DNA of 64,000 nt, taken from assembly GCA_037783545.1 (NCBI GenBank), contig JBBELK010000635.1, positions 186,001 to 250,000 on the forward strand, given 5' to 3'. The position numbers and the translations under genes are program-made. The notes beneath the pieces were generated by a model. That model was not told the origin of the DNA and searched no databases. It saw nothing but the letters and a program-made list of their open reading frames with translations. Positions 1-57,770 of the stretch are shown here, one piece after another; position 1 is the first letter of the stretch, and each line of letters opens with the position of its first letter. The DNA is from Henricia sp. BOLD:AAB3569. Its lineage: Eukaryota > Echinodermata > Asteroidea > Spinulosida > Echinasteridae.

Positions 1-13
1 TTTGATAAAAATT

Positions 14-2483
14 GATGGACTAACCCCTTGTGATTTTTTTAATTTTTGGCCAAAAATGTTATGATTTAGATTTTCCTTACAATTGCAGGAAATGTTGCTT
101 AGGACCCATAGATGATATTCCTTGAATTTGACATTGACTGGTCATCTAGAAAATAAAATATGAAATTTGAAAATGTTTTACATTTTGAGAAAATTTGTTG
201 TTTTTTTGCCAAATTGTCCATTTTTCCTAGAAATACGGTTCCAGACAGGCTAAATTTTCATTATGAGTCATTTCTAAGACATTTTAAAAAACGTCAATTT
301 TTGGCCAATTTTGATAAAAATTGATGGACTAACCCCTTGTGATTTTTTTAATTTTTGGCCAAAAATGTTATGATTTAGATTTTCCTTACAATTGCAGGAA
401 ATGTTGCTTAGGACCCATAGATGATATTCCTTGAATTTAACATTGACTGGTCATCCAGAAAATAAAATATGAAATTTGGAAAATTTTACATTTTAAGAAA
501 ATTTGTTGAATTTTTGCCAAATTGTCAATTTTTCCTAGAAATACGGTTCCAGACAGGCTAAATTTTCATTATGAGTCATTTCTAAGACATTTTAAAAAAC
601 GTCAATTTTTTGCCAATTTTGATAAAAATTGATGGACTAACCCCTTGTGATTTCTTTAATTTTTTGCAAAAAATGTTATGATTTAGATTTTTCTTAAAAT
701 TGCAGGAAATGTTGCTTAGGACCCATAGATGATATTCCTTGAATTTAACATTGACTGGTCATCCAGAAAATAAAATATGAAATTTGGAATATTTATAGAT
801 TTTGAGAAAATTTGTTGTTTTTTTGCCAAATTGTCCATTTTTCCTAGAAATACGGTTCCAGACAGGTTAAATTTTCGTTATGAGTCATTTCTAAGACATT
901 TTAAAAAACGTCAATTTTTAGCCAATTTTGATAAAAATTGATAGACTAACCCCTTGTGATTTTTTTAATTTTTGGCCAAAAATGTTATGATTTAGATTTT
1001 CCTTACAATTGCAGGAAATGTTGCTTAGGACCCATAGATGATATTCCTTGAATTTAACATTGACTGGTCATCCAGAAAATAAAATATGAAATTTGGAAAT
1101 TTTTTAGATTTTGAGAAAATTTGTTGAATTTTTGTCAAATTGTCCACTTTTCTTAGAAATAAGGTTCCAGACAGGTTAAATTTTCATTATGAGTCATTTC
1201 TAAGACATTTTTAAAAACGTCAATTTTTTGCCAATTTTGATAAAAATTGATGGACTAACCCCTTGTGATTTTTTTAATTTTTGTCCAAAAATGTTATGAT
1301 TTAGATTTTCCTTAAAATTGCAGGAAATGTTGCTTAGGACCCATAGATGATATTCCTTGAATTTAACATTGACTGGTCATCTAGAAAATAAAATATGAAA
1401 TTTGAAAATGTTTTACATTTTGAGAAAATTTGTTGTTTTTTTGCCAAATTGTCCATTTTTCCTAGAAATACGGTTCCAGACAGGCTAAATTTTCATTATG
1501 AGTCATTTCTAAGACATTTTAAAAAACGTCAATTTTTGGCCAATTTTGATAAAAATTGATGGACTAACCCCTTGTGATTTTTTTAATTTTTGGCCAAAAA
1601 TGTTATGATTTAGATTTTCCTTACAATTGCAGGAAATGTTGCTTAGGACCCATAGATGATATTCCTTGAATTTAACATTGACTGGTCATCCAGAAAATAA
1701 AATATGAAATTTGGAAAATTTTACATTTTAAGAAAATTTGTTGAATTTTTGCCAAATTGTCAATTTTTCCTAGAAATACGGTTCCAGACAGGCTAAATTT
1801 TCATTATGAGTCATTTCTAAGACATTTTAAAAAACGTCAATTTTTTGCCAATTTTGATAAAAATTGATGGACTAACCCCTTGTGATTTCTTTAATTTTTT
1901 GCAAAAAATGTTATGATTTAGATTTTTCTTAAAATTGCAGGAAATGTTGCTTAGGACCCATAGATGATATTCCTTGAATTTAACATTGACTGGTCATCCA
2001 GAAAATAAAATATGAAATTTGGAATATTTATAGATTTTGAGAAAATTTGTTGTTTTTTTGCCAAATTGTCCATTTTTCCTAGAAATACGGTTCCAGACAG
2101 GTTAAATTTTCGTTATGAGTCATTTCTAAGACATTTTAAAAAACGTCAATTTTTAGCCAATTTTGATAAAAATTGATGGACTAACCCCTTGTGATTTTTT
2201 TAATTTTTGGCCAAAAATGTTATGATTTAGATTTTCCTTACAATTGCAGGAAATGTTGCTTAGGACCCATAGATGATATTCCTTGAATTTAACATTGACT
2301 GGTCATCCAAAAAATAAAATATGAAATTTGGAAATTTTTTAGATTTTGAGAAAATTTGTTGAATTTTTGTCAAATTGTCCACTTTTCTTAGAAATAAGGT
2401 TCCAGACAGGTTAAATTTTCATTATGAGTCATTTCTAAGACATTTTTAAAAACGTCAATTTTTGCCAATTTTGATAAAAATTG
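14..2483. repeat. Two copies of a four-monomer higher-order repeat (~1,235 bp)
   Basis: Monomers 1-4 (14-1248) and 5-8 (1249-2483) match each other in order far better than neighbouring monomers do. The segment GAAAATGTTTTACATTTTG occurs in monomers 1 and 5, AATTTTACATTTTAAG in 2 and 6, ATATTTATAGATTTTGAG in 3 and 7, and the CCACTTTTCTTAG variant in 4 and 8. Differences between the two copies are isolated bases. This is a homogenised higher-order unit, as in primate alpha satellite. Later parts of the array reuse the same monomer types in other orders. Confidence 0.88.
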
Positions 2484-5400
2484 ATGGACTAACCCCTTGT
2501 GATTTTTTTAATTTTTGTCCAAAAATGTTATGATTTAGATTTTCCTTAAAATTGCAGGAAATGTTGCTTAGGACCCATAGATGATATTCCTTGAATTTAA
2601 CATTGACTGGTCATCCAGAAAATAAAATATGAAATTTGGAATATTTTTAAATTTTGAGAAAATTTGTTGTTTTTTTGCCAAATTGTCAATTTTTCTTAGA
2701 AATAAGGTTCCAGACAGGCTAAGTTTTCATTATGAGTCATTTCTATGACATTTAAAAAAACGTCAATTTTTAGCCAATTTTGATAAAAATTGATGGACTA
2801 ACCCCTTGTGATTTGTTTAATTTTTGGCCAAAAATTTTATGATTTAGATTTTCCTTAAAATTACAGGAAATGTTGCTGAGGACCCTTAGATGATATTCCT
2901 TGAATTTAACCTCGATTGGTCATCCAGAAAATAAAATATGAAATTTGGAATATTTTTAGATTTTGAGAAAATTTGTTGAATTTTTGCCAAATTGTAAATT
3001 TTTCTTAGAAATAAGGTTCCAGACAGGCTAAGTTTTCATTATGAGTCATTTCTAAGACATTTTAAAAAACGTCAATTTTTGGCCAATTTTGATAAAAATT
3101 GATGGACTAACCCCTTGTGATTTTTTTAATTTTTGTCCAAAAATGTTATGATTTAGATTTTCCTTAAAATTGCAGGAAATGTTGCTTAGGACCCATAGAT
3201 GATATTCCTTGAATTTAAAATTGACTGGTCATCCAGAAAATAAAATATGAAATTTTGAATATTTTTAGATTTTGAGAAAATTTGTTGTTTTTTTGCCAAA
3301 TTGTCAATTTTTCTTAGAAATACGGTTCCAGACAGGCTAAATTTTAATTATGAGTCATTTCTAAGACATTTTAAAAAACGTCAATTGTTTGCCAATTTTG
3401 ATAAAAATTGATGGACTAACCCCTTGTGATTTTTTTAATTTTTGGCCAAAAATGTTATGATTTAGATTTTCCTTAAAATTGCAGGAAATGTTGCTTAGGA
3501 CCCATAGATGATATTCCTTGAATTTGACATTGACTGGTCATCTAGAAAATAAAATATGAAATTTGAAAATGTTTTACATTTTGAGAAAATTTGTTGTTTT
3601 TTTGCCAAATTGTCCATTTTTCCTAGAAATACGGTTCCAGACAGGCTAAATTTTCATTATGAGTCATTTCTAAGACATTTTAAAAAACGTCAATTTTTGG
3701 CCAATTTTGATAAAAATTGATGGACTAACCCCTTGTGATTTTTTTAATTTTTGGCCAAAAATGTTATGATTTAGATTTTCCTTAAAATTGCAGGAAATGT
3801 TGCTTAGGACCCTTAGATGATATTCCTTGAATTTAACATTGACTGGTCATCTAGAAAATAAAATATGAAATTTGGAATTTTTTTAGATTTTGAGAAAATT
3901 TGTTGAATTTTTGTCAAATTGTCCACTTTTCTTAGAAATAAGGTTCCAGACAGGTTAAATTTTCATTATGAGTCATTTCTAAGACATTTTAAAAAACGTC
4001 AATTTTTTGCCAATTTTGATAAAAATTGATGGACTAACCCCTTGTGATTTTTTTAATTTTTGGCCAAAAATGTTATGATTTAGATTTTCCTTACAATTGC
4101 AGGAAATGTTGCTTAGGACCCATAGATGATATTCCTTAAATTTAACATTGACTGGTCATCCAGAAAATAAAATATGAAATTTGGAAAATTTTAGATTTTA
4201 AGAAAATTTGTTGAATTTTTGCCAAATTGTCAATTTTTCCTAGAAATACGGTTCCAGACAGGCTAAATTTTCATTATGAGTCATTTCTAAGACATTTTAA
4301 AAAACGTCAATTTTTTGCCAATTTTGATAAAAATTGATGGACTAACCCCTTGTGATTTTTTTAATTTTTGGCCAAAAATGTTATGATTTAGATTTTCCTT
4401 AAAATTGCAGGAAATGTTGCTTAGGACCCATAGATGATATTCCTTGAATTTAACATTGACTGGTCATCCAGAAAATAAAATATGAAATTTGGAATATTTT
4501 TAGATTTTGAGAAAATTTGTTGTTTTTTTGCCAAATTGTCCATTTTTCCTAGAAATACGTTTCCAGACAGGTTAAATTTTCGTTATGAGTCATTTCTAAG
4601 ACATTTTAAAAAACGTCAATTTTTAGCCAATTTTGATAAAAATTGATGGACTAACCCCTTGTGATTTTTTTAATTTTTGGCCAAAAATGTTATGATTTAG
4701 ATTTTCCTTACAATTGCAGGAAATGTTGCTTAGGACCCATAGATGATATTCCTTGAATTTAACATTGACTGGTCATCCAGAAAATAAAATATGAAATTTG
4801 GAATATTTTTAAATTTTGAGAAAATTTGTTGTTTTTTTGCCAAATTGTCAATTTTTCTTAGAAATAAGGTTCCAGACAGGCTAAGTTTTCATTATGAGTC
4901 ATTTCTAAGACATTTTCAAAAACGTCAATTTTTGGCCAATTTTGATAAAAATTGATGGACTAACCCCTTGTGATTTTTTTAATTTTTGGCCAAAAATGTT
5001 ATGATTTAGATTTTCCTTAAAATTACAGGAAATGTTGCTTAGGACCCTTAGATGATATTCCTTGAATTTAACCTCGATTGGTCATCCAGAAAATAAAATA
5101 TGAAATTTGGAATATTTTTAGATTTTGAGAAAATTTGTTGAATTTTTGCCAAATTGTAAATTTTTCTTAGAAATAAGGTTCCAGACAGGCTAAGTTTTCA
5201 TTATGAGTCATTTCTATGACATTAAAAAAAACGTCAATTTTTAGCCAATTTTGATAAAAATTGATGGACTAACCCCTTGTGATTTTTTTAATTTTTGGCC
5301 AAAAATGTTATGATTTAGATTTTCCTTAAAATTGCAGGAAATGTTGCTTAGGACCCTTAGATGATATTCCTTGAATTTAACATTGACTGGTCATCTAGAA

Positions 5401-6849
5401 AATAAAATATGAAATTTGGAAATTTTTTAGATTTTGAGAAAATTTGTTGAATTTTTGTCAAATTGTCCACTTTTCTTAGAAATAAGGTTCCAGACAGGTT
5501 AAATTTTCATTATGAGTCATTTCTAAGACATTTTAAAAAACGTCAATTTTTTGCCAATTTTGATAAAAATTGATGGACTAACCCCTTGTGATTTTTTTAA
5601 TTTTTGGCCAAAAATGTTATGATTTAGATTTTCCTTACAATTGCAGGAAATGTTGCTTAGGACCCATAGATGATATTCCTTGAATTTAACATTGACTGGT
5701 CATCCAGAAAATAAAATATGAAATTTGGAAAATTTTAGATTTTAAGAAAATTTGTTGAATTTTTGCCAAATTGTCAATTTTTCCTAGAAATACGGTTCCA
5801 GACAGGCTAAATTTTCATTATGAGTCATTTCTAAGACATTTTAAAAAACGTCAATTTTTTGCCAATTTTGATAAAAATTGATGGACTAACCCCTTGTGAT
5901 TTTTTTAATTTTTGGCCAAAAATGTTATGATTTAGATTTTCCTTAAAATTGCAGGAAATGTTGCTTAGGACCCATAGATGATATTCCTTGAATTTAACAT
6001 TGACTGGTCATCCAGAAAATAAAATATGAAATTTGGAATATTTTTAAATTTTGAGAAAATTTGTTGTTTTTTTGCCAAATTGTAAATTTTTCTTAGAAAT
6101 AAGGTTCCAGACAGGCTAAGTTTTCATTATGAGTCATTTCTATGACATTAAAAAAAACGTCAATTTTTAGCCAATTTTGATAAAAATTGATGGACTAACC
6201 CCTTGTGATTTTTTTAATTTTTGGCCAAAAATGTTATGATTTAGATTTTCCTTAAAATTGCAGGAAATGTTGCTTAGGACCCTTAGATGATATTCCTTCA
6301 ATTTAACATTGACTGGTCATCTAGAAAATAAAATATGAAATTTGGAATTTTTTTAGATTTTGAGAAAATTTGTTGAATTTTTGTCAAATTGTCCACTTTT
6401 CTTAGAAATAAGGTTCCAGACAGGTTCAATTTTCATTATGAGTCATTTCTAAGACATTTTCAAAAACGTCAATTTTTGGCCAATTTTGATAAAAATTGAT
6501 GGACTAACCCCCTTGTGATTTTTTTAATTTTTGGCCAAAAATTTTATGATTTAGATTTTCCTTAAAATTACAGGAAATGTTGCTTAGGACCCTTAGATGA
6601 TATTCCTTGAATTTAACCTCGATTGGTCATCCAGAAAATAAAATATGAAATTTGGAATATTTTTAGATTTGAGAAAATTTGTTGAATTTTTGCCAAATTG
6701 TAAATTTTTCTTAGAAATAAGGTTCCAGACAGGCTAAGTTTTCATTATGAATCATTTCTATGACATTTTAAAAAACGTAAATTTTTAGCCAATTTTGATA
6801 AAAATTGATGGACTAACCCCTTGTGATTTTTTTAATTTTTGGCCAAAAA

Positions 6850-9800
6850 TGTTATGATTTAGATTTTCCTTAAAATTACAGGAAATGTTGCTGAGGACCC
6901 TTAGATGATATTCCTTGAATTTAACCTCGATTGGTCATCCAGAAAATAAAATATGAAATTTTGAATATTTTTAGATTTTGAGAACATTTTTTGAATTTTT
7001 GCCAAATTGTAAATTTTTCTTAGAAATAAGGTTCCAGACAGGCTAAGTTTTCATTATGAGTCATTTCTAAGACATTTTAAAAAACGTCAATTTTTAGCCA
7101 ATTTTGATAAAAATTGATGGACTAACCCCTTGTGAATTTTTTAATTTTTGGCCAAAAATGTTATGATTTAGATTTTCCTTAAAATTGCAGGAAATGTTGC
7201 TTAGGACCCTTAGATGATATTCCTTCAATTTAACATTGACTGGTCATCTAGAAAATAAAATATGAAATTTGGAAATTTTTTAGATTTTGAGAAAATTTGT
7301 TGAATTTTTGTCAAATTGTCCACTTTTCTTAGAAATAAGGTTCCAGACAGGTTCAATTTTCATTATGAGTCATTTCTAAGACATTTTCAAAAACGTCAAT
7401 TTTTGGCCAATTTTGATAAAAATTGATGGACTAACCCCTTGTGATTTTTTTAATTTTTGGCCAAAAATTTTATGATTTAGATTTTCCTTAAAATTACAGG
7501 AAATGTTGCTTAGGACCCTTAGATGATATTCCTTGAATTTAACCTCGATTGGTCATCCAGAAAATAAAATATGAAATTTGGAATATTTTTAGATTTTGAG
7601 AAAATTTGTTGAATTTTTGCCAAATTGTAAATTTTTCTTAGAAATAAGGTTCCAGACAGGCTAAGTTTTCATTATGAATCATTTCTATGACATTTTAAAA
7701 AACGTAAATTTTTAGCCAATTTTGATAAAAATTGATGGACTAATTCCTTGTGATTTTTTTAATTTTTGGCCAAAAATGTTATGATTTAGATTTTCCTTAA
7801 AATTACAGGAAATGTTGCTGAGGACCCTTAGATGATATTCCTTGAATTTAACCTCGATTGGTCATCCAGAAAATAAAATATGAAATTTTGAATATTTTTA
7901 GATTTTGAGAAAATTTTTTGAATTTTTGCCAAATTGTAAATTTTTCTTAGAAATAAGGTTCCAGACAGGCTAAGTTTTCATTATGAGTCATTTCTAAGAC
8001 ATTTTAAAAAACGTCAATTTTTAGCCAATTTTGATAAAAATTGATGGACTAACCCCTTGTGAATTTTTTAGTTTTTGGCCAAAAATGTTATGATTTAGAT
8101 TTTCCTTAAAATTGCAGGAAATGTTGCTTAGGACCCATAGATGATATTCCTTGAATTTAACATTGACTGGTCATCTAGAAAATAAAATATGAAATTTGGA
8201 AAATTTTAGATTTTGGGAAAATTTGGATAATTTTTGCCAAATTGTCCACTTTTCTTAGAAATAAGGTTCCAGACAGGTTAAATTTTCATTATGAGTCATT
8301 TCTAAGACATTTTCAAAAACGTTAATTTTTGGCCAATTTTGATAAAAATTGATGGACTAACCCCTTGTGATTTTTTTAATTTTTGGCCAAAAATGTTATG
8401 ATTTAGATTTTCCTTAAAATTGCAGGAAATGTTGCTTAGGACCCATAGATGATATTCCTTGAATTTAACCTCGATTGGTCATCCAGAAAATAAAATATGA
8501 AATTTGGAATATTTTTAGATTTTGAGAAAATTTGTTGAATTTTTGCCAAATTGTAAATTTTTCTTAGAAATAAGGTTCCAGACAGGCTAAGTTTTCACTA
8601 TGAATCAATTCTATGACATTTAAAAAAACGTCAATTTTTAGCCAATTTTGATAAAAATTGATGGACTAACCCCTTGTGATTTTTTTAATTTTTGGCCAAA
8701 AATTTTATGATTTAGATTTTCCTTAAAATTACAGGAAATGTTGCTGAGGACCCTTAGATGATATTCCTTGAATTTAACCTCGATTGGTCATCCAGAAAAT
8801 AAAATATGAAATTTGGAATATTTTTAGATTTTGAGAAAATTTGTTGAATTTTTGCCAAATTGTAAATTTTTCTTAGAAATAAGGTTCCAGACAGGCTAAG
8901 TTTTCATTATGAGTCATTTCTAAGACATTTTAAAAAACGTCAATATTTTGCCAATTTTGAAAAAAATTGATGGACTAACCCCTTGTGATTTTTTTAATTT
9001 TTGGCCAAAAATTTTATGATTTAGATTTTCCTTAAAATTGCAGGAAATGTTGCTTAGGACCCATAGATGATATTCCTTGAATTTAAAATTGACTGGTCAT
9101 CCAGAAAATAAAATATGAAATTTTGAATATTTTTAGATTTTGAGAAAATTTGTTATTTTTTTGCCAAATTGTCAATTTTTCTTAGAAATACGGTTCCAGA
9201 CAGGCTAAGTTTTCATTATGAGTCATTTCTATGACATTTAAAAAAACGTCAATTTTTGGCAAATTTTGATAAAAATTGATGGACTAACCCCTTGTGATTT
9301 TTTTAATTTTTGGCCAAAAATGTTATGATTTAGATTTTCCTTACAATTGCAGGAAATGTTGCTTAGGACCCATAGATGATATTCCTTGAATTTGACATTG
9401 ACTGGTCATCTAGAAAATAAAATATGAAATTTGAAAATGTTTTACATTTTGAGAAAATTTGTTGTTTTTTTGCCAAATTGTCCATTTTTCCTAGAAATAC
9501 GGTTCCAGACAGGCTAAATTTTCATTATGAGTCATTTCTAAGACATTTTAAAAAACGTCTATTTTTTGCCAATTTTGATAAAAATTGATGGACTAACCCC
9601 TTGTGATTTTTTTATTTTTTGGCCAAAAATGTTATGATTTAGATTTTCCTTAAAATTGCAGGAAATGTTGCTTAGGACCCATAGATGATATTCCTTGAAT
9701 TTAACATTGACTGGTCATCTAGAAAATAAAATATGAAATTTGGAAAATTTTAGATTTTGGGAAAATTTGTTAAATTTTTGCCAAATTGTCCACTTTTCTT

Positions 9801-11110
9801 AGAAATAAGGTTCCAGACAGGTTAAATTTTCATTATGAGTCATTTCTAAGACATTTTCAAAAACGTCAATTTTTGGCCAATTTTGATAAAAATTGATGGA
9901 CTAACCCCTTGTGATTTTTTTAATTTTTGGCCAAAAATGTTATGATTTAGATTTTCCTTAAAATTACAGGAAATGTTGCTGAGGACCCTTAGATGATATT
10001 CCTTGAATTTAACCTCGATTGGTCATCCAGAAAATAAAATATGAAATTTTGAATATTTTTAGATTTTGAGAACATTTTTTGAATTTTTGCCAAATTGTAA
10101 ATTTTTCTTAGAAATAAGGTTCCAGACAGGCTAAGTTTTCATTATGAGTCATTTCTAAGACATTTTAAAAAACGTCAATTTTTAGCCAATTTTGATAAAA
10201 ATTGATGGACTAACCCCTTGTGAATTTTTTAATTTTTGGCCAAAAATGTTATGATTTAGATTTTCCCTAAAATTGCAGGAAATGTTGCTTAGGACCCTTA
10301 GATGATATTCCTTCAATTTAACATTGACTGGTCATCTAGAAAATAAAATATGAAATTTGGAAATTTTTTAGATTTTGAGAAAATTTGTTGAATTTTTGTC
10401 AAATTGTCCACTTTTCTTAGAAATAAGGTTCCAGACAGGTTCAATTTTCATTATGAGTCATTTCTAAGACATTTTCAAAAACGTCAATTTTTGGCCAATT
10501 TTGATAAAAATTGATGGACTAACCCCTTGTGATTTTTTTAATTTTTGGCCAAAAATTTTATGATTTAGATTTTCCTTAAAATTACAGGAAATGTTGCTTA
10601 GGACCCTTAGATGATATTCCTTGAATTTAACCTCGATTGGTCATCCAGAAAATAAAATATGAAATTTGGAATATTTTTAGATTTTGAGAAAATTTGTTGA
10701 ATTTTTGCCAAATTGTAAATTTTTCTTAGAAATAAGGTTCCAGACAGGCTAAGTTTTCATTATGAATCATTTCTATGACATTTTAAAAAACGTAAATTTT
10801 TAGCCAATTTTGATAAAAATTGATGGACTAACCCCTTGTGATTTTTTTAATTTTTGGCCAAAAATGTTATGATTTAGATTTTCCTTAAAATTACAGGAAA
10901 TGTTGCTGAGGACCCTTAGATGATATTCCTTGAATTTAACCTCGATTGGTCATCCAGAAAATAAAATATGAAATTTTGAATATTTTTAGATTTTGAGAAA
11001 ATTTTTTGAATTTTTGCCAAATTGTAAATTTTTCTTAGAAATAAGGTTCCAGACAGGCTAAGTTTTCATTATGAGTCATTTCTAAGACATTTTAAAAAAC
11101 GTCAATTTTT
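6850..11110. repeat. Second-scale duplication inside the satellite (offset about ten monomers)
   Basis: A rare variant with GAACATTTTTTGAATTTTT occurs near 6,983 and again near 10,072. Each time it is followed one monomer later by the equally rare CCTTCAATTTAACATTG (7,224 and 10,313) and then by TATGAATCATTTCTATGAC. The block of about four monomers starting near 6,850 therefore recurs at about 9,935, roughly 3,087 bp (ten monomers) away. This shows that segmental exchange in the array acts on blocks of several monomers. Exact block ends need a self dot plot. Confidence 0.6.
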
Positions 11111-12059
11111 AGCCAATTTTGATAAAAATTGATGGACTAACCCCTTGTGATTTTTTTATTTTTTGGCCAAAAATGTTATGATTTAGATTTTCCTTAAAAT
11201 TGCAGGAAATGTTGCTTAGGACCCATAGATGATATTCCTTGAATTTAACATTGACTGGTCATCTAGAAAATAAAATATGAAATTTGGAAAATTTTAGATT
11301 TTGGGAAAATTTGTTAAATTTTTGCCAAATTGTCCACTTTTCTTAGAAATAAGGTTCCAGACAGGTTAAATTTTCATTATGAGTCATTTCTAAGACATTT
11401 TCAAAAACGTCAATTTTTGGCCAATTTTGATAAAAATTGATGGACTAACCCCTTGTGATTTTTTTAATTTTTGGCCAAAAATTTTATGATTTAGATTTTC
11501 CTTAAAATTACAGGAAATGTTGCTTAGGACCCTTAGATGATATTCCTTGAATTTAACCTCGATTGGTCATCCAGAAAATAAAATATGAAATTTGGAATAT
11601 TTTTAGATTTTGAGAAAATTTGTTGAATTTTTGCCAAATTGTAAATTTTTCCTAGAAATAAGGTTCCAGACAGGCTAAGTTTTCATTATGAATCATTTCT
11701 ATGACATTTAAAAAAACGTCAATTTTTAGCCAATTTTGATAAAAATTGATGGACTAACCCCTTGTGATTTTTTTAATTTTTGGCCAAAAATGTTATGATT
11801 TAGATTTTCCTTAAAATTGCAGGAAATGTTGCTTAGGACCCATAAATGATATTCCTTGAATTTAACCTCGATTGGTCATCTAGAAAATAAAATATGAAAT
11901 TTGGAAAATTTTAGATTTTTGGGAAAATTTGTTGTTTTTTTGCCAAATTGTCAATTTTTCTTAGAAATACGGTTCCAGACAGGCTAAATTTTAATTATGA
12001 GTCATTTCTAAGACTTTTAAAAAAACGTCAATTGTTTGCCAATTTTGATAAAAATTGAT

Positions 12060-12325
12060 GGACTAACCCCTTGTGATTTGTTAAATTTTTGGCCAAAAAT
12101 GTTATGATTTAGATTTTCCTTAAAATTGCAGGAAATGTTGCTTAGGACCCATAGATGATATTCCTTGAATTTAACCTCGATTGGTCATCCAGAAAATAAA
12201 ATATGAAATTTGGAATATTTTTAGATTTTGAGAAAATTTGTTGAATTTTTGCCAAATTGTAAATTTTTCTTAGAAATAAGGTTCCAGACAGGCTAAGTTT
12301 TCATTATGAATCAATTTTGATAAAA
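12060..12325. repeat. Satellite monomer with internal ~48 bp deletion
   Basis: At 12,306-12,320 the sequence passes directly from TCATTATGAATCA to ATTTTGATAAAAATTG. All other monomers have about 48 further bases there, including the GACATTT(T)AAAAAACGTCAA block. It is the only clearly shortened monomer I found and breaks the 309 bp phase once. Confidence 0.85.
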
Positions 12326-13499
12326 ATTGATGGACTAACCCCTTGTGATTTTTTTAATTTTTGGCCAAAAATGTTATGATTTAGATTTTCCTTAAAATTA
12401 TAGGAAATGTTGCTTAGGACCCTTAGATGATATTCCTTGAATGTAACCTCGATTGGTCATCCAGAAAATAAAATATGAAATTTTGAATATTTTTAGATTT
12501 TGAGAAAATTTTTTGAATTTTTGCCAAATTGTAAATTTTTCTTAGAAATAAGGTTCCAGACAGGCTAAGTTTTCATTATGAGTCATTTCTAAGACATTTT
12601 AAAAAACGTCAATTTTTAGCCAATTTTGATAAAAATTGATGGACTAACCCCTTGTGAATTTTTTAGTTTTTGGCCAAAAATGTTATGATTTAGATTTTCC
12701 TTAAAATTGCAGGAAATGTTGCTTAGGACCCATAGATGATATTCCTTGAATTTAACATTGACTGGTCATCTAGAAAATAAAATATGAAATTTTGAAAATT
12801 TTAGATTTTGGGAAAATTTGTTGTTTTTTTGCCAAATTGTCCATTTTTCCTAGAAATACGTTTCCAGACAGGTTAAATTTTCGTTATGAGTCATTTCTAA
12901 GACATTTTAAAAAACGTCAATTTTTGGCCAATTTTGATAAAAATTGATGGACTAACCCCTTGTGATTTTTTTAATTTTTGGCCAAAAATGTTATGATTTA
13001 GATTTTCCTTAAAATTACAGGAAATGTTGCTTAGGACCCATAGATGATATTCCTTAAATTTAACCTCGATTGGTCATCCAGAAAATAAAATTTGAAATTT
13101 GGAATATTTTTAGATTTTGAGAAAATTTGTTGAATTTTTGCTAAATTTTAAATTTTTCTTAGAAATAAGGTTCCAGACAGGCTAAGTTTTCATTATGAGT
13201 CATTTCTAAGACATTTTAAAAAACGTCAATTTTTAGCCAATTTTGATAAAAATTGATGGACTAACCCCTTGTGATTTTTTTAGTTTTTGGCCAAAAATGT
13301 TATGATTTAGATTTTCCTCAAAATTGCAGGAAATGTTGCTTAGGACCCATAGATGATATTCCTTTAATTTAACATTGACTGGTCATCCAGAAAAACAAAT
13401 ATGAAATTTGGAATATTTTTAGATTTTGAGAAAATTTGTTGAATTTTTGCCAAATTGTCCATTTTTCTTTGAAATAAGGTTCCAGACAGGCTAAATTTT

Positions 13500-13930
13500 T
13501 ATTATGAGTCATTTCTAAGACATTTTGAAAAAAGTCAATTTGTGGCCAATTTTTGCAACTGGAATAATTGATGCAACTGGAATAATTGATGCAACTGGAA
13601 TAATTGATGCAACTGGAAAATGTTCAATTTTCTCAGAAATTAGCTTGGAAAACTGCCAAAATATGTTAAAACGGAGTAAATTTTCGTTAGAAGTCGTTTC
13701 TAAGACATTTCCAAAAAAGGTCAATTTGTGGCCAATGTTTTAAATTTTTTGCAAAAAATTGTTTGATTCAGATTTTCTCCAAAAATGCAGGAAAGGTGTT
13801 TAGAAACTCGTCTAGATGATATTCCTTGAATTTGACCTCATCCAGGAAATAAAATATCACATTTTTGTCCAAAATTCCATTTTTCTCAGAAATTTGCTTG
13901 GAAAACTGCCAAAATATGTAAAATCATAGA
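13500..13930. repeat. Diverged satellite monomers at the array edge
   Basis: From about 13,500 the monomer pattern is still recognisable (GAGTCATTTCTAAGACATT, GATGATATTCCTTGAATTTGAC, AAATAAAATAT) but heavily mutated. It shares GCTTGGAAAACTGCCAAAAT twice (near 13,645 and 13,898), so at least one and a half old monomers remain. Decay at the boundary next to a homogeneous core is the usual pattern for satellites. Confidence 0.8.
13555..13617. repeat. 18-bp microsatellite (3.5 copies) inside an edge monomer
   Basis: The unit GCAACTGGAATAATTGAT is repeated three times without a mismatch and followed by a half unit. It interrupts the diverged satellite monomer between GGCCAATTTTT and the following TTCTCAGAAATTAGC. 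It is open in both directions but is not evidence of a gene. Confidence 0.97.
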
Positions 13931-13940
13931 AAAAAGTAAC

Positions 13941-14080
13941 TAAAGTGGGCGTACGCCAAAATTTAGCTACTTGATTGGTTGAATGAGTTTCTTACCGTTT
14001 CTCAACGTTTGCACACACAAACCATAGATACTACGTTGTATTTGTGGCTAGACTATCTGTACAAGCTAGGATACATTATG
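13941..14080. repeat. Dispersed repeat R, copy 1 (diverged)
   Basis: The stretch from AAGTGGGCGTACGCCAAAAT through TCTCAACGTTTGCACAC and ACAAACCATAGATACTACG to TTGTGGCTAGACTA matches the repeats at 14,554-15,062 and 15,490-15,640. The family is unnamed here. It contains no coding potential. Confidence 0.7.
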
Positions 14081-14340
14081 GATATATAGGGCGGTCGGGT
14101 TAATTGGCGTAGTGGTTCTTTCTGCTGGCCTGCCTGTAATGACCGCTTTCCAATGGACTACCCTTGCACATTGGTAGTTTGGAGGATGTTTTCTCGCGGA
14201 ATTCCGTGCGATGTCTTGGAACGTTGCTCAATGATGGAGTACCCCACTGGGAAAGCCGGTAAAATTTTGGAACACGATTAGATCCGTGTCTGCGGTCTTG
14301 ATAATGGCTCGACCTGGACTGGTGATGATAGTGGATATTG

Positions 14341-14528
14341 ACCTGGAGCCAATGAGTAAATAGTCAAAGTTGCATGTCAACTTGCGTTTTTCACAAGAAT
14401 ATCTGCTATTCTTGCTAAAAACACAAGTTGACGTAAAATGTTCAATATTAACCCATTTTTATAAAGCAAACAAATTTTTGATTAAGCAAATTTTGTTGCT
14501 TAACTGCTTTATGAAATTGGCCCCAGGA
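14341..14528. mobile_element. Foldback MITE family C, copy 1
   Basis: It begins ACCTGGAGCCAAT and ends ATGAAATTGGCCCCAGG, so the ends are inverted. Inside are CACAAGAATATCTGCTATTC and TTAACCCATTTTTATAAAGC, also found at 18,311-18,551. The copy at 18,311 is longer and better preserved. A non-autonomous inverted-repeat element is the best reading. Confidence 0.7.
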
Positions 14529-14553
14529 CTGGCAACGACAATGATTGAGGAAC

Positions 14554-15062
14554 TGGTTAGTGCGCATGCGCCGAAATCCAGTTAGTTGATTGCACAATTA
14601 ACCATAGCAATTACGCTGTATTTGTGACTATAGACTACCGGCTCGCGATATTTTTTTCCGTACCACTGTTTAGCGAACATTGCTTCTGATTGGTTTAACC
14701 CCTATGCATATGTTGCATACTGATGTGTTTTGTCGATAACTACCTCAACATAACCCCACACCATACCACACTCTTTCCTCAATTAATAGTTAAAAAAATT
14801 TAATACGACTCTGAGGAGATTCGATCCTGCCATCTCTCGATTGATAGCACTACGTCTTAACCACTAGACTACCGAACGACTCGACAAACTCCTGAATTTT
14901 CTTTCTTATATCCTTTTATTTAATAACTCTTGGAGGCGCTATATAGAAAATATGAATATTCATTTACAATGCACCAATCGATGAAGCCCCATAGCGAATA
15001 TGTGGTACGGAAAAAAAAATCGCTACCGGCTCAGGATTTTGACCGGTAACAAATGTTAGAGT
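14554..15062. repeat. Dispersed repeat R, copy 2, split by a transposon insertion
   Basis: Left half 14,554-14,644 (TAGTGCGCATGCGCCGAAAT up to TACCGGCTC) and right half 15,024-15,062 (TACCGGCTC then AGGATTTTGACCGGTAA) together equal the uninterrupted copy at 15,490-15,640. The 379 bp in between is the inserted element at 14,645-15,023. TACCGGCTC on both sides is the target duplication. Confidence 0.8.
14645..15023 (-). mobile_element. 379-bp TIR element with embedded tRNA-like sequence and 9-bp TSD
   Basis: The ends are inverted repeats: left GCGATATTTTTTTCCGTACC, right end complementary GCGATTTTTTTTTCCGTACC. Direct repeats TACCGGCTC (9 bp) flank it. On the minus strand around 14,800-14,880 there is a tRNA-like stretch with an A-box-like TAGTCTAGTGGTTAAGACG and a B-box-like GGATCGAATC. 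A 9-bp duplication is typical of Mutator-like (MULE) elements; hAT elements give 8 bp. No transposase is present, so it is non-autonomous. Related copies lie at 21,411-21,800 and, much diverged, at 20,945-21,165. Confidence 0.78.
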
Positions 15063-15230
15063 GGTAAAATTAATACCCGAGGTTTTTGTAGGGTGTTGGG
15101 TGAGCAGTCAAAATCAAGGAAAGTGTCAGCTCTGGGCTCTATAACCACATTTTCTGCACTTTTGAAGAAAGTCTGAATCATGAAAAAAAAGTAATATCTC
15201 GTTCGCACAGTCCCGCGACCTTACGAAGAC

Positions 15231-15405
15231 CATTAGCCTATGTCATATCACTCAAGCGTGACCAGTGCGCTTGCGCATTGAGGACCGAGAGCGGACAAAT
15301 GTCAATATGGCGAATGGAACAAAGGGTTTAGCGTTTGTGTTCGGGCGCCATGTTGACAATTGTCCGCTTTAGTCGGTCACGCTTGAGTGTGTGACAGAGC
15401 TAATG
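15231..15405. mobile_element. Foldback element (imperfect palindrome)
   Basis: Left arm CATTAGCCTATGTCATATCA then CTCAAGCGTGACC. Right arm GGTCACGCTTGAG then TGTGTGACAGAGCTAATG. The arms continue inward with GCGGACAAATGTCAATATGG against CCATGTTGACAATTGTCCGC. The whole 175 bp could form one hairpin. No copies elsewhere in the window and no clear target duplication. Confidence 0.75.
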
Positions 15406-15489
15406 CCGATCACCCCCCATCTGAAAAAGTTATCAAATCGGGGCAGTAAGCAATTTCTCTCAAAACGTGGCCGTGTTAAAAAGTCACAC

Positions 15490-15640
15490 TTAGTGCGCAT
15501 GCGCCAAAATCCGGCTAGATGATTGGCTACAGGCGTTTCTTAACGTCTCTCAACGTTTGCACCGCACAAACCATAGCCATTACGCTGTATTTGTAACTAG
15601 ACTAGCCTGGATTTTAACCGGTAAAATTTTTTAGAGGGTT
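15490..15640. repeat. Dispersed repeat R, copy 3 (uninterrupted, empty-site paralogue)
   Basis: It reads from TAGTGCGCATGCGCCAAAAT to ACTAGACTAGCCTGGATTTT and AACCGGTAAAATTTTTTAG without any insertion. It therefore shows what the target of the 14,645 element looked like before insertion. Confidence 0.75.
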
Positions 15641-15999
15641 GTTGGAAGTTGAAACAAAATTAAATACAATCTACACCTGATATGAAAGTTTTATTTTGCT
15701 CACTTTATTAGTTAATCTGTTTAGGTTTGCCGTAGAGGCACGTTGCTAAATTGTACTGTTTTGAGCTGTAGGCCTACGCTTGTTCTTTCTATGATTAACT
15801 TGTTACAAGACTAAATGAAATTTAAAGCGCGGACCGGGCCGTTGACTATTTATTAGGGTACCTGGGTCGTCATCACGTCACAAGAGGGCGCTCTTCATAT
15901 CACGAGAGGGCGCCCTTTACGGTGCTCCCATTTGGGTGCAGTTAATGCTAAATTCTCGTTCTAATATTCATCAGGTCCAAAATTCTTAACCTGGTGTGG

Positions 16000-16070
16000 T
16001 CGCCGCGGTGGTCTAGTGGAGAGAGCAGAGGACTCGAGATCAGAGGACCCCGGTTCAACTCCCGCGGCGA
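16000..16070 (+). other. Degenerate tRNA-like sequence (not a functional tRNA)
   Basis: Seventy-one bases are bounded by a perfect 7-bp acceptor-like stem (TCGCCGC with GCGGCGA) and hold an A-box-like TGGTCTAGTGG and a B-box-like GGTTCAACTCC. The anticodon and T arms do not pair properly, so a working tRNA is unlikely. A SINE head or tRNA pseudogene fits better; the closest ordinary pattern is Glu/Asp-type. No recognised SINE body follows. Confidence 0.45.
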
Positions 16071-17300
16071 ACATGTACTAACCCCATGATTGATATACTA
16101 ACCCAATGATTTATATATACTAACCACTGATAATATGTATAATATGTACTAACCACTAATCCATGAATAAAGACAGAGACGGAAACAACGCAAAGGAGAC
16201 GACACCGGAAGGAGTCAGCAAGGGGAGGAGACAGAGAGGGAGGAGACGGGGAGGGGAGCACACACTTTTTTGGGGGGGGGGGAAGGGTGCAGAATTGATT
16301 TTTTCGTGCACCATATCTTTATTTTTTTTGGCGCATGTGGACCAAGTTAACGGTCTCACACGCACCATGATAATACACTCAACTACAATGGCGAGTACAA
16401 ATGATGGAGCGCCAAAGAGACAAAATATCAAAATATCCGATAAAAAGGCTAAAAATTAAAAAACTACAATAGATGAGCTAAAAATGAAAAAAATTACAAT
16501 AAATCATGGGGCGCCAAAATGACAAAATTAAAATAAATGTGCTAAAAATCCAATAAATTACAAAATAAATGATGGAGCGCCAAAATGACAAACTTACAAT
16601 AAATGTGATTAAAAGGCTAACAATTACAAAATTACAATAGATTGGCTATTATAAGGCGAAGAATGAAAAGAAAATTACAATAAATTAACTAAAAATGACA
16701 AATAGCTTAAAAGTGCAGATCCCGTAAGGGCCCGACTCAATTCCAAAAACATTTATTATTTCATTCCCTGATCGAAATACTTTTCGTTTCCTCGATATAT
16801 TACTTCGTTTCCTATAAAAATATTATTTTGTTCCCTCCAAATAGTTATTTTGAGGGAACAAAACCTATTTCGAGGGAACAAAACTTATTTTGAGGGAACA
16901 AAAAAAACCATGTTTTTGGAATTGAGTCCCCTTACGAGCTCCGTAAAAAGCAATAACACAACTATGACAGAAACACAATTTATAATGGGGCCAAAAGACC
17001 ATACATGATGAAATAAAAACTTTGAAAGGTGCACTCTGCCAGAGATTAAGCCAAAAAAGACCTCAAAATTGATTGAATGTGAAAAAGATGGTCCAAAAGT
17101 AAGCAGGATAAATTTTTCACAGAGATTATGCATTTCAGGAGTTAATTTAAGGTACACAGTTTCGAAAAATTTTGAGGCAGAATGATCTTTAAATGAAGAT
17201 CTACTCTAAAATTAACACTTTTTCAAGCACATTACATTGGAAAATTGCTATAACGGACTCCATAATAAGGCCAAAAACATCCCCCGTGATAGTTGTGAGG
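16071..17300. other. Gene-free interval with low-complexity AT repeats
   Basis: 16,080-16,160 repeats TACTAACC(A/C) about six times. About 16,380-16,700 is a degenerate tandem repeat built on GGCGCCAAAATGACAAAATT and AATAAATGTGCTAAAAAT. 16,800-16,910 holds three or four copies of GAGGGAACAAAA(C)TTATTTT. The open frames here are low-complexity and show no protein family. Confidence 0.6.
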
Positions 17301-18310: not shown

Positions 18311-18551
18311 ACCTGGGGCCAATTTCATCAAGCTGTTTAGCAGACAAATTTGCTTAATCCAATATTTGTTGGCTTTATAAAATTGAGTTAATAGTTGAAA
18401 TTGAGTGTCAACTTGTGTTTGTCACAAGAATATCTGCTATTCTTACACAAGTTCACTTACAATTTTTACTATTAACCCATTTTTATAAAGCAAACAAATG
18501 TTTGATTAAGCAATTTTTCTGCTAAACAGCTTGATGAAATTGGCCCCAGGT
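18311..18551. mobile_element. Foldback MITE family C, copy 2
   Basis: It starts ACCTGGGGCCAATTTCATCA and ends TGATGAAATTGGCCCCAGGT, perfect terminal inverted repeats of about 20 bp. Arms continue inward (AGCTGTTTAGCAGACAAATT against AATTTTTCTGCTAAACAGCT). The centre carries CAAGAATATCTGCTATTCTT. It is the better preserved relative of 14,341-14,528. Confidence 0.85.
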
Positions 18552-21216: not shown

Positions 21217-22285
21217 CACCGTCTGTCATCTTAGTACTCCAAAAACATATTGCCTTGCCTAGACTAGTCTCGTACCCAGACCTTCTGTGGATGCTCGCAC
21301 ATCAGGTCTGGATCATGATGAGAGCTATCACTGATTGGTTGAGGCCCGCACTGAATTTCGGTGCGGGACCCCTGCGAAGCTTTTGTCTACTATCATAAGC
21401 ACCGCGGGTAGCGATATTGTTTTCCGTACCGCATTTTAGCGAACATTGCTTCTGACTGGTTTAACCCCCCATGCATATGTTGCATACTGATGTGTTTTGT
21501 CGATAACTACCTCAACATAACCCCACACCATACCACACTCTTTCCTCAATTAATCGTGAAAAAAATCAATACGACTCAAGGGAGATTCGAACCTGCAATC
21601 TCTCGATTGATAGTCTTACGTCTTAACCACTAGACTACCAAACGACACGACAACCCCTTACATTTTCTTCCTTATATCCTTTTATTTAATAACTCTTGAA
21701 AGCCTATATAGAAAATACATGTATGAACATTCATTTACAATGCACCAATCAGACACCTCGATGAAGCCCCATAGCAAATATGTGGTACGGAAAGAAATAT
21801 AAGGCTGCCCACAAATCAGTACCTTAACACACCCCATATATGGTATTTACAAGAAACATGACACATTTACACTATGAGCAAGAACATGTACTGTTCATTG
21901 TAACCCCATTGTTAGTAACAATGGTGTGTGCCCAATTTCCATTGTTAGATGTTCATAGTGTTAGTTGTTCATAGTGTTAGGCCTAGTAGCTGGCACTTCT
22001 TTATGACGTTGTCTCGGTCAAATTCAATCACAACAGGTACCGCATAGCATTTGAAACACTGACGAATAGCCGCTCACGTGCTATCAACGACGGCTCACGA
22101 ATAGGTAATGGCCGGCATTTAACCTATCAGCGATGAGCTTTCACCGTGATTCCCCAGACCTGATGTGCGAGCATCCACAGCAGGTCGGGGTACGAGTGTC
22201 TAGACATGTATCTTCACTAGTGATCGTATGGACTGGGGACCAGTCTAGGCAAAGCATCGTCTTGGGAGTACTAAGATGGCGAGCG
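21217..22285. mobile_element. ~1.07-kb element with ~100-bp terminal inverted repeats, containing a nested element
   Basis: The left end (from CATCTTAGTACTCC, then GCCTTGCCTAGACTAGTC, TCGTACCCAGACC and GTGGATGCTCGCACATCAGG) is repeated in inverse order at the right end (CCTGATGTGCGAGCATCCAC, GGTACGAGTGTCTAGAC, CAGTCTAGGC, GGAGTACTAAGATGG). No transposase frame exists between them. Part of the middle (21,411-21,800) is a separate inserted element. It is an unnamed non-autonomous DNA transposon. Confidence 0.75.
21411..21800 (-). mobile_element. Second copy of the tRNA-like TIR element, nested
   Basis: Left end GCGATATTGTTTTCCGTACC, right end TGTGGTACGGAAAGAAATAT. The interior matches 14,645-15,023 over GAACATTGCTTCTGA, TGCATATGTTGCATACTGAT, the tRNA-like block near 21,590-21,660 and AATGCACCAATC. 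The right TIR is more eroded and no target duplication is evident. It lies between the inverted arms of 21,217-22,285 and so was inserted later. Confidence 0.75.
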
Positions 22286-22799: not shown

Positions 22800-23040
22800 G
22801 GATTGAAACGTAAGACCTCTCGCAAACGCTTTACCAGTTAAGCTATACAAGGCACAGTGGTATAGTCCTCAGGTTTTCTCCAAGACCTGCGACACACTAG
22901 GCAGATGTTTGACCAGCTGAGCTATGAGGTATAGTGGTATACTCCCTCAAGTTTTACCCAAGACTTTTAACACACCGGCCAGATTTTCTATCAGATGAGC
23001 TACGAGGCAAGGTGGTGTACTCCAATTTTGTTAAGAACCA
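22800..23040 (-). repeat. Tandem tRNA-like array (3 units of ~75 bp)
   Basis: Three imperfect units each contain, on the plus strand, a sequence like ACCAGCTGAGCTATGAGG then AGTGGTATACTCC and AAGACC. On the minus strand this reads as TAGCTCAGCTGGTAGAGCA, a canonical tRNA A box and D arm. The same unit is tandem at 45,990-46,290 and single at 58,625-58,720. Units do not fold into full tRNAs. Confidence 0.7.
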
Positions 23041-23105: not shown

Positions 23106-23815
23106 CCGTATCGAATAGCCACCATTTCGTGGGGCACCTTTTGTTACTTAAAGGGCCTGTGACGTCCTAAACAACTTTATGCCTAAGCTTTGCTTCATAA
23201 TGACAGATTACTTGTTCTGCAAGACATACTATTGTTCGTTTGGATGTAAAATCAATAAAAGGTGGCATTTTTCAACTTTGAAGATTTCATTGCAATAAAT
23301 CACAGACAGAGGGCGCTGTTTTGAGTGCATCACATAAGGAAGACAGAAGGGAAAAGTTAAGAAAAAACATAAGACTTCAAGTTGGACTTGTGGCAAATTG
23401 CTGCAGTTTCTACCCCAAGTTTTGTCAAGGCTCACAGCAGGCAACATGTAAAACAAACTCAAACAGCCATGGATTACATAAGTTTCAGGAAAATTGAGAA
23501 AAAAGTGGAATCTTTTGTGCACAGGTCAATGTGATTTTCCTGTGTTTGCCTCTTGTGACGTCGTGACCTTGGTCATGAATATGCATATTTTCATTAGCAT
23601 AAAAACTAGAAACCTTTGTTTTAACCCCCAAAGCAAGCTCCAAAAACTTTAACTGAGTAAAGTGGTTTTAAAGCATAGATTTCATTGATAAAAATCCTAA
23701 ATAAGGGGCCCTTTAAACCGTTCAACAATGGAAGCACAATATGTGCAACCATGCATGTCCTCAAGGAACAAAGGAAACTGCCCCACGGCGGCTATTCGAT
23801 ACGGTCTGTTTGGTA
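23106..23815. mobile_element. Foldback family E, copy 2, split by a TTAA element
   Basis: Left arm CCGTATCGAATAGCCACCAT then TTCGTGGGGCA; right arm TGCCCCACGGCGGCTATTCG then ATACGGTCTGT. Between them lies the whole 23,148-23,716 element and then the loop sequence GTGCAACCATGCATGTCCTC, which is the inverse of the loop in copy 1. The host hairpin is therefore older than the insertion. Confidence 0.8.
23148..23716. mobile_element. TTAA-flanked MITE family F, copy 1 (569 bp)
   Basis: The ends read TTAAAGGGCC and GGCCCTTTAA, so TTAA is the probable duplicated target. The interior (including ACAGAGGGCGCTGTTTTGAG and AACAAACTCAAACAGCCATG) is matched in inverse orientation at 27,722-28,295 with high identity. 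It has no transposase. TTAA targets are typical of piggyBac and Kolobok superfamilies. Confidence 0.85.
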
Positions 23816-25538: not shown

Positions 25539-28500
25539 TTAGTCGAACAGACCTGTGGATATAAAAAAGGAAAATAAACAAAAACGTATAAACTTTTAAG
25601 TTTTTAAACTTTTTGTTTTGTTTTTGAACAGTTAAAAGGCACAGGCTCGTCACCAATGCGCGTGCGCACAGCTCCATAGCAAAGGCATGGAGCTGCGTAT
25701 TTTGTGGTACGAATTCGGCGTGCACGCATTGCTGACGAGCCTGTGCCTTTAACTAAAATGTGCATTTCTTATGAGCTGAACAATGGTTTGAACCCATTTA
25801 AACTGACAAGTGAGCTGTATTTGTAATGTTTAATGTTTTAAATAAATGTAGTAGTGTTGTGTTTGCTTTTAATGTGTATTTCTATGTATATTTTAGTGCA
25901 GAGACCACTGAATTTCCCTTTGATGGGACAATCAAGTTCTTAAGAGACACTGAGGCAGAGTGTGCCACTGTCTGAAGTGCCTCCCTGCGATCCTGCACTT
26001 CTGGGGCTGTTTGGGAGATGTGCGGGATTCAGATGTCAGTTCATCCCATGCAGGTTTAATCAGTTCTCAAAAATCAAACAAAATTGGTGTTCTGAGAGCC
26101 TTTATTAACTACGTCATGATTCTCCGAGTAACAGGAATTATCGTATTCCCTTACCGAGGGAATCACTGTTCAAACGGGTCATCATGGACCTGGAGGAAAT
26201 CACTGAATTGGAACAGTCTTGAAAGCGATTCCAAAGTTGATCAGTTCCTTGTTATTCCAGGGCTGCCAACCCTTCCTAATTTTGGAACATTTCCTGGACA
26301 AATTGCTGATTTTGTGACTCCTGACAAAGTAAAAACCCTCCCTGGGTTGTCAGTTAACAACTTCAGAGATTTTGAGATGCATCTCAAGTTGGGAGCTCAA
26401 CCTATTTTCTGGGCGTCTTCTCCAAAATCAGGGAGGGTTGGCAGCCCTGTTTTCCACACATTCACTGTACATGTATTCGACAAACGTCTGTTCTGGTCAA
26501 GAACTGATATTTGAGGAAAATTTGAAAACTGAGCGTAACTCACCAAATCCCATGTCATCGTCCGATTCCTCTTCCGATTCTTCCTTCTTTTCTTCTTTCT
26601 TCTCTTCGGCTGAAGATGAAAATAAAGAAATGTCGTTAGATGACTTAGGAACTCAAATACACAAATCAAACAGTACACAATTTCTATAAGCTGGTCAATA
26701 CTTGTATCTTAAAAAGCCCATCGACCACCAAAACACATTAATCTGCTTAAGAAACCGTAAGAATTGAGAAGCTTATTATTCTATTTTTTTAATACGACTT
26801 ATATTAAGCATCAGTAAGTGCAGATTTGAAAGAAAAATCTCAAATTTAGGAGTGGGAACGAATAAAGATTTAAAAAAAAAAACATTTTCAGTCTCATGTT
26901 CTTGAATTTTTTCTGCATCATGTTTTTATAAGAGGGTTTTGTTTTATTATTTGGCAAAACGTGGGAAAAGATACCGCACACGTTCGCTAGTTGAGACTTC
27001 ATGCACTAAGTCTATGAAGCATGACATACATCTCCAAAGTGTTTAAAGAAAAACTTGACATTTTCCCATTGCTAAAAATCATGTTTTTTACCAAATTAAC
27101 CCTTTCTGGGGCATTATTTTATTTTAGGAAGAATTGGTGTCGAACGTATATATGGTATTGATACAAAAACTTGTGAACTTTTTGTTTTTTAGTTTAACAA
27201 TGCAAAGAAGTGTTTTTTCTATTAAATCTGCACTTCCTGATGCTCAATTCTTATAGAAAAATATAGAATTTTAACTGTATAAAAAGACCGAATTTGTCCC
27301 ATCTAACGTAAATGTCCGTGACCTTGCCACCCTATTGATGAACAATGGCTGATGAATAGGGTGGCGACCTCACAGACCTGGCAACTATGCCGACATTTAC
27401 ATTGGATAGACAATACATTACCAGGTGCTTCCTTGGCCCCGCCTGCACCGCCGCCCCCTCCACCAACTGCCGGTCCCGCTGAAGGGCTCCCAACGTTGGA
27501 CAGAAGGGAGCTGATGTCCTGGGCTTCCAAAGCTTTGGCAAACAGACCAGGCCAGAAGGGTTCCACGGTGACACCAGCTGCCTTGACAAGTTGGTTGATC
27601 TTGTCCGCCTGTATGAAAAAATACAAATGGGTATTTTGTACACCTTTTTTAAGGAATTGAGCATTTGACCAGGAGCAGGGCGGTAAGACTGGAAGTAGAT
27701 CAGAATTTTTTTTCTTTAAATTTAAAGGGCCCCTTATTTAGGATTTTTATCAATGAAATCTATGCTTTAAAACCACTCTACTCAGTTAACATGGTTAAAG
27801 TCACAAAATCCTATTTGGAGCTTGCTTTGGGGGTTAAAACAAAGTTTTTAGTTTTTATGCTAATGAAAATATGTATATTCATGACCCAGGTCACGATGTC
27901 ACAAGAGGCAAACACATGAAAATCACAAGAAAAGATTCCACTTTTTCTCAATTTTTCTGAAACTTTTGTAATCCATGGCTGTTTGAGTTTGTTTTACATG
28001 TTGCCTGCTGTAAGCCATGACAAAACTGGGGTAGAAACTGCAGCAATTTGCCACAAGTCCAACTTGAAGTCTTATGTTTTTTCTTAACTTTTTCCTTCCG
28101 TCTTCCTTATGTGATGCACTCAAAACAGCGCCCTCTGTCTGTGATTTATTGCAATAAAATCTTAAGTTGCAAAAGGCCACCTTTTATTGATTTTACATCC
28201 AAACCAACAATAGTATGTCTTGCTGAACAAGTAATCCGTCATTATGAAGCAAAGCTTAAAAGCACAAAGTTGTTTAGCATGTCACAGGCCTTTAACTTTT
28301 TGACTGGCCCGTTGGCCATGTTGGCGTTTCAACTTCCTGACTTGTACTTCAAGTTCAAGTGGCCCGGTTCAAATTTCAATTCTGGTGTTTATTTTACACA
28401 CATTTGAGTGAATAAACTAGGACAATTTTATAGTTATTAGGTTCTCCCCAGTACAAGTTTGAAAATGTGTGGTGAATTTTTTAACTATTCTAGCGTGCAG

Positions 28501-57731: not shown

Positions 57732-57770
57732 ATTGTGTTGAACGTAGAAGAACTAAGAACAGCTAGGAAG

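What the first reader, a model, noticed from the sequence alone, without database searches (positions are those of the whole stretch)
1..13520. Satellite with higher-order repeat structure in an invertebrate locus
Monomers of ~309 bp form at least two near-identical four-monomer units (14-1248, 1249-2483). Elsewhere the same monomer types occur in other orders, and a ~3.09-kb offset duplication exists. Higher-order structure means recent homogenisation by multi-monomer exchange, as at centromeres. A gene-bearing region starts only 12 kb from its edge, so this may be a pericentromeric boundary.
Basis: partly seen in the sequence, partly recalled or inferred. Interest (0 to 1): 0.72.

Follow-up and report, generated by a model that had tools for sequence, protein, structure and literature searches.

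The report
AT-rich satellite array with block duplications
This is a run of 44 tandem copies of a 309-base AT-rich repeat next to ordinary animal genes, reshuffled by recent copying of several repeats at a time; it looks like an ordinary kind of satellite DNA and nothing here shows that it is a centromere.

Summary
The array is real: 44 head-to-tail monomers, nearly all 308-309 bp, fill 1-13553 (26.9% GC consensus; flank about 40%), with a degenerate tail to about 13936, so the stated end is short. The two four-monomer units (1229 of 1236 columns identical) and the 3.09-kb offset duplication (99.65%) are confirmed, and monomer order is not random. It is not a regular higher-order repeat: duplicated blocks sit at 3-, 4-, 5-, 10- and 13-monomer offsets and no lag dominates. 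Best account: local copying of multi-monomer blocks, weakening at the array edge. A mild surprise: no monomer is at least 98% identical to its first or second neighbour (0 of 85 pairs, about 5.8 expected), though 16 of 120 pairs at lags 3-5 are; this weakens at a 97% cut, and my rough simulations did not reproduce the whole picture. The pericentromere reading is untested: no CENP-B-like box was found and gene-like ORFs begin about 13 kb away. Dispersed euchromatic satellites are well described. The left end, genome-wide copy number and species could not be reached.

The parts
1..13553 (.). Satellite array of 44 tandem monomers, consensus 309 bp, 26.9% GC; runs off the left end of the window
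14..2483 (.). Two adjacent four-monomer units (14-1248 and 1249-2483); best-matching core 131-1228 ~ 1366-2463, 99.8%
3700..6046 (.). Block duplication at lag 5: 3700-4502 ~ 5244-6046, 99.75%
6210..8136 (.). Adjacent block duplication at lag 3: 6210-7209 ~ 7137-8136, 99.4%; at a 97% cut two monomers of it recur once more three monomers on (m25-26 ~ m28-29)
6788..11313 (.). Block duplication at lag 10 (about 3.09 kb): 6788-8225 ~ 9876-11313, 99.65%
6253..11150 (.). Block duplication at lag 13: 6253-7135 ~ 10268-11150, 99.66% (overlaps the lag-3 and lag-10 blocks)
12044..12315 (.). Short monomer of 272 bp that lacks about the last 37 bases of the consensus
13554..13618 (.). 18-bp minisatellite, 3.6 perfect copies, at the end of the last intact monomer
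13617..13936 (.). Degenerate tail: monomer pieces about 75% and 85% like the consensus, alternating with a 54-bp segment present twice at 90.7% (13617-13670, 13871-13923)
13944..14055 (.). Dispersed repeat directly beside the array; further copies at 15492-15604 (79.6%) and, shortened, at about 14555-14637
   Evidence: the third copy was seen by eye and aligned

Best explanation
An ordinary AT-rich satellite array whose monomers have been copied and rearranged in blocks of roughly three to five monomers (about 0.8-1.4 kb) by local recombination within the array, such as unequal exchange, gene conversion or break-induced replication. Shown: the array, the block duplications at several offsets, the fall of similarity with distance, and the extra private changes near the right edge. 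Inferred: the recombination process. In this stretch it is not a regular higher-order repeat. Its position on the chromosome is not known; a satellite array in or beside gene-bearing chromatin is my first guess, and no function needs to be supposed.
For: Five high-identity segments of 0.8-1.4 kb at lags 3, 4, 5, 10 and 13; the best score is 1134 against a maximum of 909 in 60 order shuffles. Similarity falls with distance: Mantel r -0.18, P 0.001 over 44 monomers and 0.0016 over m1-m38. Private changes average 3.3 in the last six monomers and 0.39 in the other 38, P 0.0005. Pairs at >=98%: 0 of 85 at lags 1-2 (P 0.00075) and 16 of 120 at lags 3-5 (P 0.004). The degenerate tail aligns to a doubled consensus with score 215 against a maximum of 55 in 200 single-base shuffles. 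ORFs matching a 60S acidic ribosomal protein, OAF, RBBP5, GABP-alpha/ETS and RING/B-box/NHL domains follow from 27.3 kb on.
Against: None of the fifteen turnover settings that I simulated (seven with 60 runs each, eight with 16 runs each) reproduced the picture in full: the medians of near-identical pairs were 134-420 against 64 observed; only blocks of exactly four gave none at lags 1-2 in every run, but then with a median longest run of 39.5 monomers against 6. So the process is not modelled correctly yet. The lack at lags 1-2 depends on the cut: P 0.07 at 97%, 0.002 at 97.5%, 0.03 at 98.5%, 0.05 at 99%. The number of high-identity segments, 5, only equals the shuffle maximum (mean 2.2), the longest exact run is below the shuffle maximum, and the number of collinear runs of two or more is within chance.
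Confidence: 0.72

Rival explanations
1. The window holds the edge of a centromeric or pericentromeric satellite domain, with a regular higher-order repeat further left. The irregular, decaying part seen here would be its outer margin.
For: The array runs off the left end, and homogenisation falls towards the right edge, as at the margins of large satellite domains (recalled for alpha satellite). The monomer is AT-rich and about two nucleosomes long (inference).
Against: No regular unit in 13.5 kb; no CENP-B-box-like site with up to 2 mismatches, although many centromeres lack it (recalled); gene-like ORFs at normal GC from about 13 kb on. Edge decay is expected of any tandem array (inference).
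Confidence: 0.25
2. The array is carried by, or derived from, a transposable element such as a Helitron or MITE with internal tandem repeats, and spreads with it.
For: The tail alternates monomer pieces with a repeated segment, somewhat like the fragmented monomers reported in flanks of Helitron-linked satellites of molluscs (PMC5139131, abstract and first part of the Results seen). A dispersed repeat starts about 8 bp beyond the tail.
Against: No Helitron-like 3' end (hairpin plus CTRRT) in 13200-16500 on either strand by a simple scan of my own, while the same scan gave 11 lines over 13554-64000. The other copies of the dispersed repeat have no satellite beside them (the monomer was found nowhere else). 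The repeated segment may itself be diverged monomer. That paper reports abrupt junctions and, for Cg170, arrays of up to 17 monomers; here there are 44 and the junction is a graded tail.
Confidence: 0.1
3. The repeated blocks are partly an assembly error in a collapsed or mis-joined array.
For: Perfect stretches of up to 813 columns are hard to place with short reads; no reads could be seen.
Against: Monomers differ by about 6% on average, the blocks overlap at several offsets with their own mismatches, and there are no Ns.
Confidence: 0.06

Closest known systems
Dispersed euchromatic satellite DNAs of invertebrates (oyster Cg170, Tribolium TCAST families)
   Same: Tandem monomers in or near gene-bearing DNA, often with dispersed elements nearby (PMC10048060, 12 of 24 passages seen; PMC5844308, 12 of 16 passages seen; PMC5139131, abstract and first part of the Results)
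   Different: Their sequences were not compared with this one. More copies in this array than the up to 17 described there for Cg170; the genome-wide spread of this one is unknown
Higher-order repeats of Meloidogyne satellites
   Same: Simple and multi-monomer organisation side by side, with shuffling between them (PMC3694981, 12 of 37 passages seen)
   Different: There the HOR unit recurs and its neighbouring monomers range from 32% to 86% identity; here the monomers are about 94% alike on average and no unit recurs regularly
Human alpha-satellite HOR arrays
   Same: Multi-monomer block copying and divergent array edges (recalled)
   Different: No fixed unit, no CENP-B box with up to 2 mismatches, monomer of 309 rather than 171 bp, centromere function untested

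Membership tests
Satellite DNA (tandem non-coding repeat) | Head-to-tail array of many similar monomers | tested here: met
   44 monomers, mean identity 93.9%
Satellite DNA (tandem non-coding repeat) | Non-coding | tested here: met
   No frame open for 100 aa in 1-13553 (shorter frames not examined); no Rfam family at gathering score in the array; four sub-threshold matches, E 0.63-4, in 2400-3450
Satellite DNA (tandem non-coding repeat) | Abundant in the genome | not testable with these tools
   Six identical requests to the genome search did not complete
Higher-order repeat array | A fixed multi-monomer unit repeated many times, much more alike than the monomers within it | tested here: not met
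   At >=98% two blocks have one adjacent copy each (lags 4 and 3) and others lie at lags 5, 10 and 13; at 97% two monomers recur a third time at lag 3. Mean identity by lag is nearly flat, 0.937-0.950 for lags 1-13. Only 13.5 kb of the array can be seen.
Centromeric or pericentromeric satellite | CENP-A or heterochromatin marks, position at the primary constriction | not testable with these tools
   Needs ChIP and FISH
Centromeric or pericentromeric satellite | CENP-B box (present in some only; consensus recalled) | tested here: not met
   No match with 0-2 mismatches in 1-13950, both strands; 60 and 22 at up to 3 mismatches, without a chance estimate
Helitron-borne tandem repeat | Helitron 3' end (hairpin and CTRRT, recalled) beside the array | tested here: inconclusive
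   None by a simple scan of 13200-16500; the left end is outside the window

The most novel reading that the evidence does not exclude
In this array recent copies never land one or two monomers away: the shift between near-identical copies is always at least three monomers (about 0.93 kb). That would mean a lower length limit on satellite exchange, which models of single-monomer slippage or unequal crossing-over do not contain (models recalled).
Probability: 0.25. Interest if true: 0.45.

Novelty: new member of a known kind. Interest (0 to 1): 0.24.

Why it matters
A satellite array edge joined to genes in one sequence lets one see how turnover of monomer blocks fades at the margin. If the lack of one- and two-monomer shifts holds in a longer stretch, it sets a lower length limit on the exchange process. 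As it stands the array is one more satellite, with no sign of an unusual function.

Tried and rejected
Function in the monomer: conserved blocks are not longer than chance (longest invariant run 16, P 0.38; 30-bp window minimum P 0.11, variance P 0.20). Single-strand DNA folding is ordinary (z -1.07 and -0.63, one of the 44 monomers, both strands). The longest perfect palindrome is 16 bp (no chance estimate for it). Within the consensus only short, weak internal repeats were found, so no clear dimer of two halves. No RNA family reached its gathering score in the array, and a permissive search of 2400-3450 gave four sub-threshold matches.

Relatives elsewhere: none in viral contigs (three patterns), genome contigs (two patterns) or phages (distant blastn). 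The patterns ask for exact matches, and these collections hold viruses and prokaryotes, so this says little. Six strings of the consensus or near it were in 0 papers of the library. Five more paper searches were seen as listings only: 15 of 209, 20 of 25, 15 of 176, 15 of 2,800 and 12 of 62; no title or opening of an abstract shown there names this satellite. Four papers were opened (with 43, 39, 48), none as a whole.

Turnover simulations: seven settings with 44 monomers and eight with 200; none fitted in full. They use pairwise Poisson counts scaled to one mean, so they are rough.

Species: not identified. The RING/B-box/NHL gene and the look of the dispersed repeats made me think of a marine deuterostome such as an echinoderm; this is recall, not a result.

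Full report
Observation. The window begins inside a tandem array. TRF covers 1-13553 in three overlapping rows, two of period 309 and one of 272 at a short monomer. Cutting at a shared anchor gives 44 monomers, 308-309 bp apart except one of 272 bp (the last interval is 312 bp by my cut). The mean of 946 pairwise identities is 93.9%. The consensus is 309 bp with 26.9% GC and one CpG where 5.5 would be expected; the DNA beyond 14 kb is 33-48% GC per kilobase. Apart from the array and its tail, blastn with the consensus finds no copy in the window.

Higher-order structure. Units 14-1248 and 1249-2483 agree in 1229 of 1236 columns. The best-matching core is 131-1228 ~ 1366-2463. The offset duplication of about 3.09 kb is 6788-8225 ~ 9876-11313, ten monomers apart. 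Three more high-identity segments lie at lags 3, 5 and 13; the one at lag 3 is adjacent to its copy, and at a 97% cut two of its monomers recur a third time. In the monomer tree m2/m6 and m3/m7 are identical and m4/m8 are sisters; m1 and m5 share a clade with m12 and m31, with m1 nearer to those. Clustering at 2% gives 20 types whose order varies along the array. A run of six collinear monomers at >=98% came up in 0 of 2000 shuffles. Other measures are less striking: the count of runs of two or more is within chance, the longest exact run is below the shuffle maximum, and the number of high-identity segments equals the shuffle maximum. Mean identity by lag is nearly flat, 0.937 to 0.950 for lags 1-13, highest at lag 10. 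So there is multi-monomer copying, but no regular higher-order repeat in this stretch.

Process. Similarity falls with distance (Mantel r -0.18, P about 0.001), so copying is mostly local. The last six monomers carry more private changes (mean 3.3 against 0.39), and beyond 13553 only degenerate pieces remain up to about 13936: homogenisation fades at the edge. No pair at lag 1 or 2 reaches 98% (0 of 85; 5.75 expected; P 0.00075), while lags 3-5 hold 16 of 120 (8.1 expected; P 0.004). The cut-off matters: at 97% the lack at lags 1-2 is only P 0.07, at 97.5% 0.002, at 98.5% 0.03 and at 99% 0.05. Simple copying models did not give the whole picture. I therefore take local copying of multi-monomer blocks as the best account and leave its exact mechanism open.

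Surroundings. A 54-bp segment occurs twice between monomer pieces in the tail; in a gapped alignment it can also be read as diverged monomer. A dispersed repeat follows at 13944, and other repeats with two or more copies lie in the flank. Of 43 ORFs of 100 aa or more, 20 were scanned against Pfam and 8 matched: 6 of 10 (E up to 0.001) and 2 of 10 (E up to 0.01). Read as genes these suggest a 60S acidic ribosomal protein (27303-27737, -), OAF (32640-32996, +), RBBP5 (40656-41003, -; named by the best solved-structure matches), GABP-alpha (43127-43516, with an ETS domain at 47430-47963, +) and one or more RING/B-box/NHL proteins (57609-63886, +). These are single-ORF matches, not gene models. 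The first ORF begins about 13.4 kb beyond the tail.

Location and function. Nothing here tests the centromere idea directly. There is no CENP-B box with up to two mismatches. Satellites and satellite-like arrays are described as a common part of euchromatin (PMC10048060, passages), and TCAST repeats of Tribolium lie partly in euchromatin (PMC5844308, passages). Multi-monomer organisation is also known in nematode satellites (PMC3694981, passages). I put the pericentromeric reading at about one in four.

Limits. The collections that did answer hold viruses and prokaryotes.

Noticed in passing
45980-46288 and 22819-23023: A tRNA-Asn-like match overlaps a 78-bp tandem repeat (3.8 copies); a related 78-bp repeat (2.3 copies, about 76% alike) lies at 22846-23023. 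It looks like tandem copies of a tRNA-derived SINE head (inference).
   Followed up: partly
23148-23717 and 27721-28295: Inverted pair of a repeat of about 590 bp, 89% identical; one copy adjoins the ORF that matches a 60S acidic ribosomal protein.
   Followed up: no
14639-15020 and 21405-21800: Two copies, 87% identical, of an element of about 390 bp; the first seems by eye to have inverted ends, as a MITE would.
   Followed up: no
14351-14527, 18312-18550: Another dispersed repeat with direct (84%) and inverted (79%) matches, by eye like a foldback or MITE.
   Followed up: no
63257-63378 and 63659-63779: A stretch of about 122 bp inside an NHL-repeat ORF is duplicated at 89% identity.
   Followed up: no
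13554-13618: An 18-bp minisatellite (3.6 perfect copies) starts where the last intact monomer ends.
   Followed up: partly
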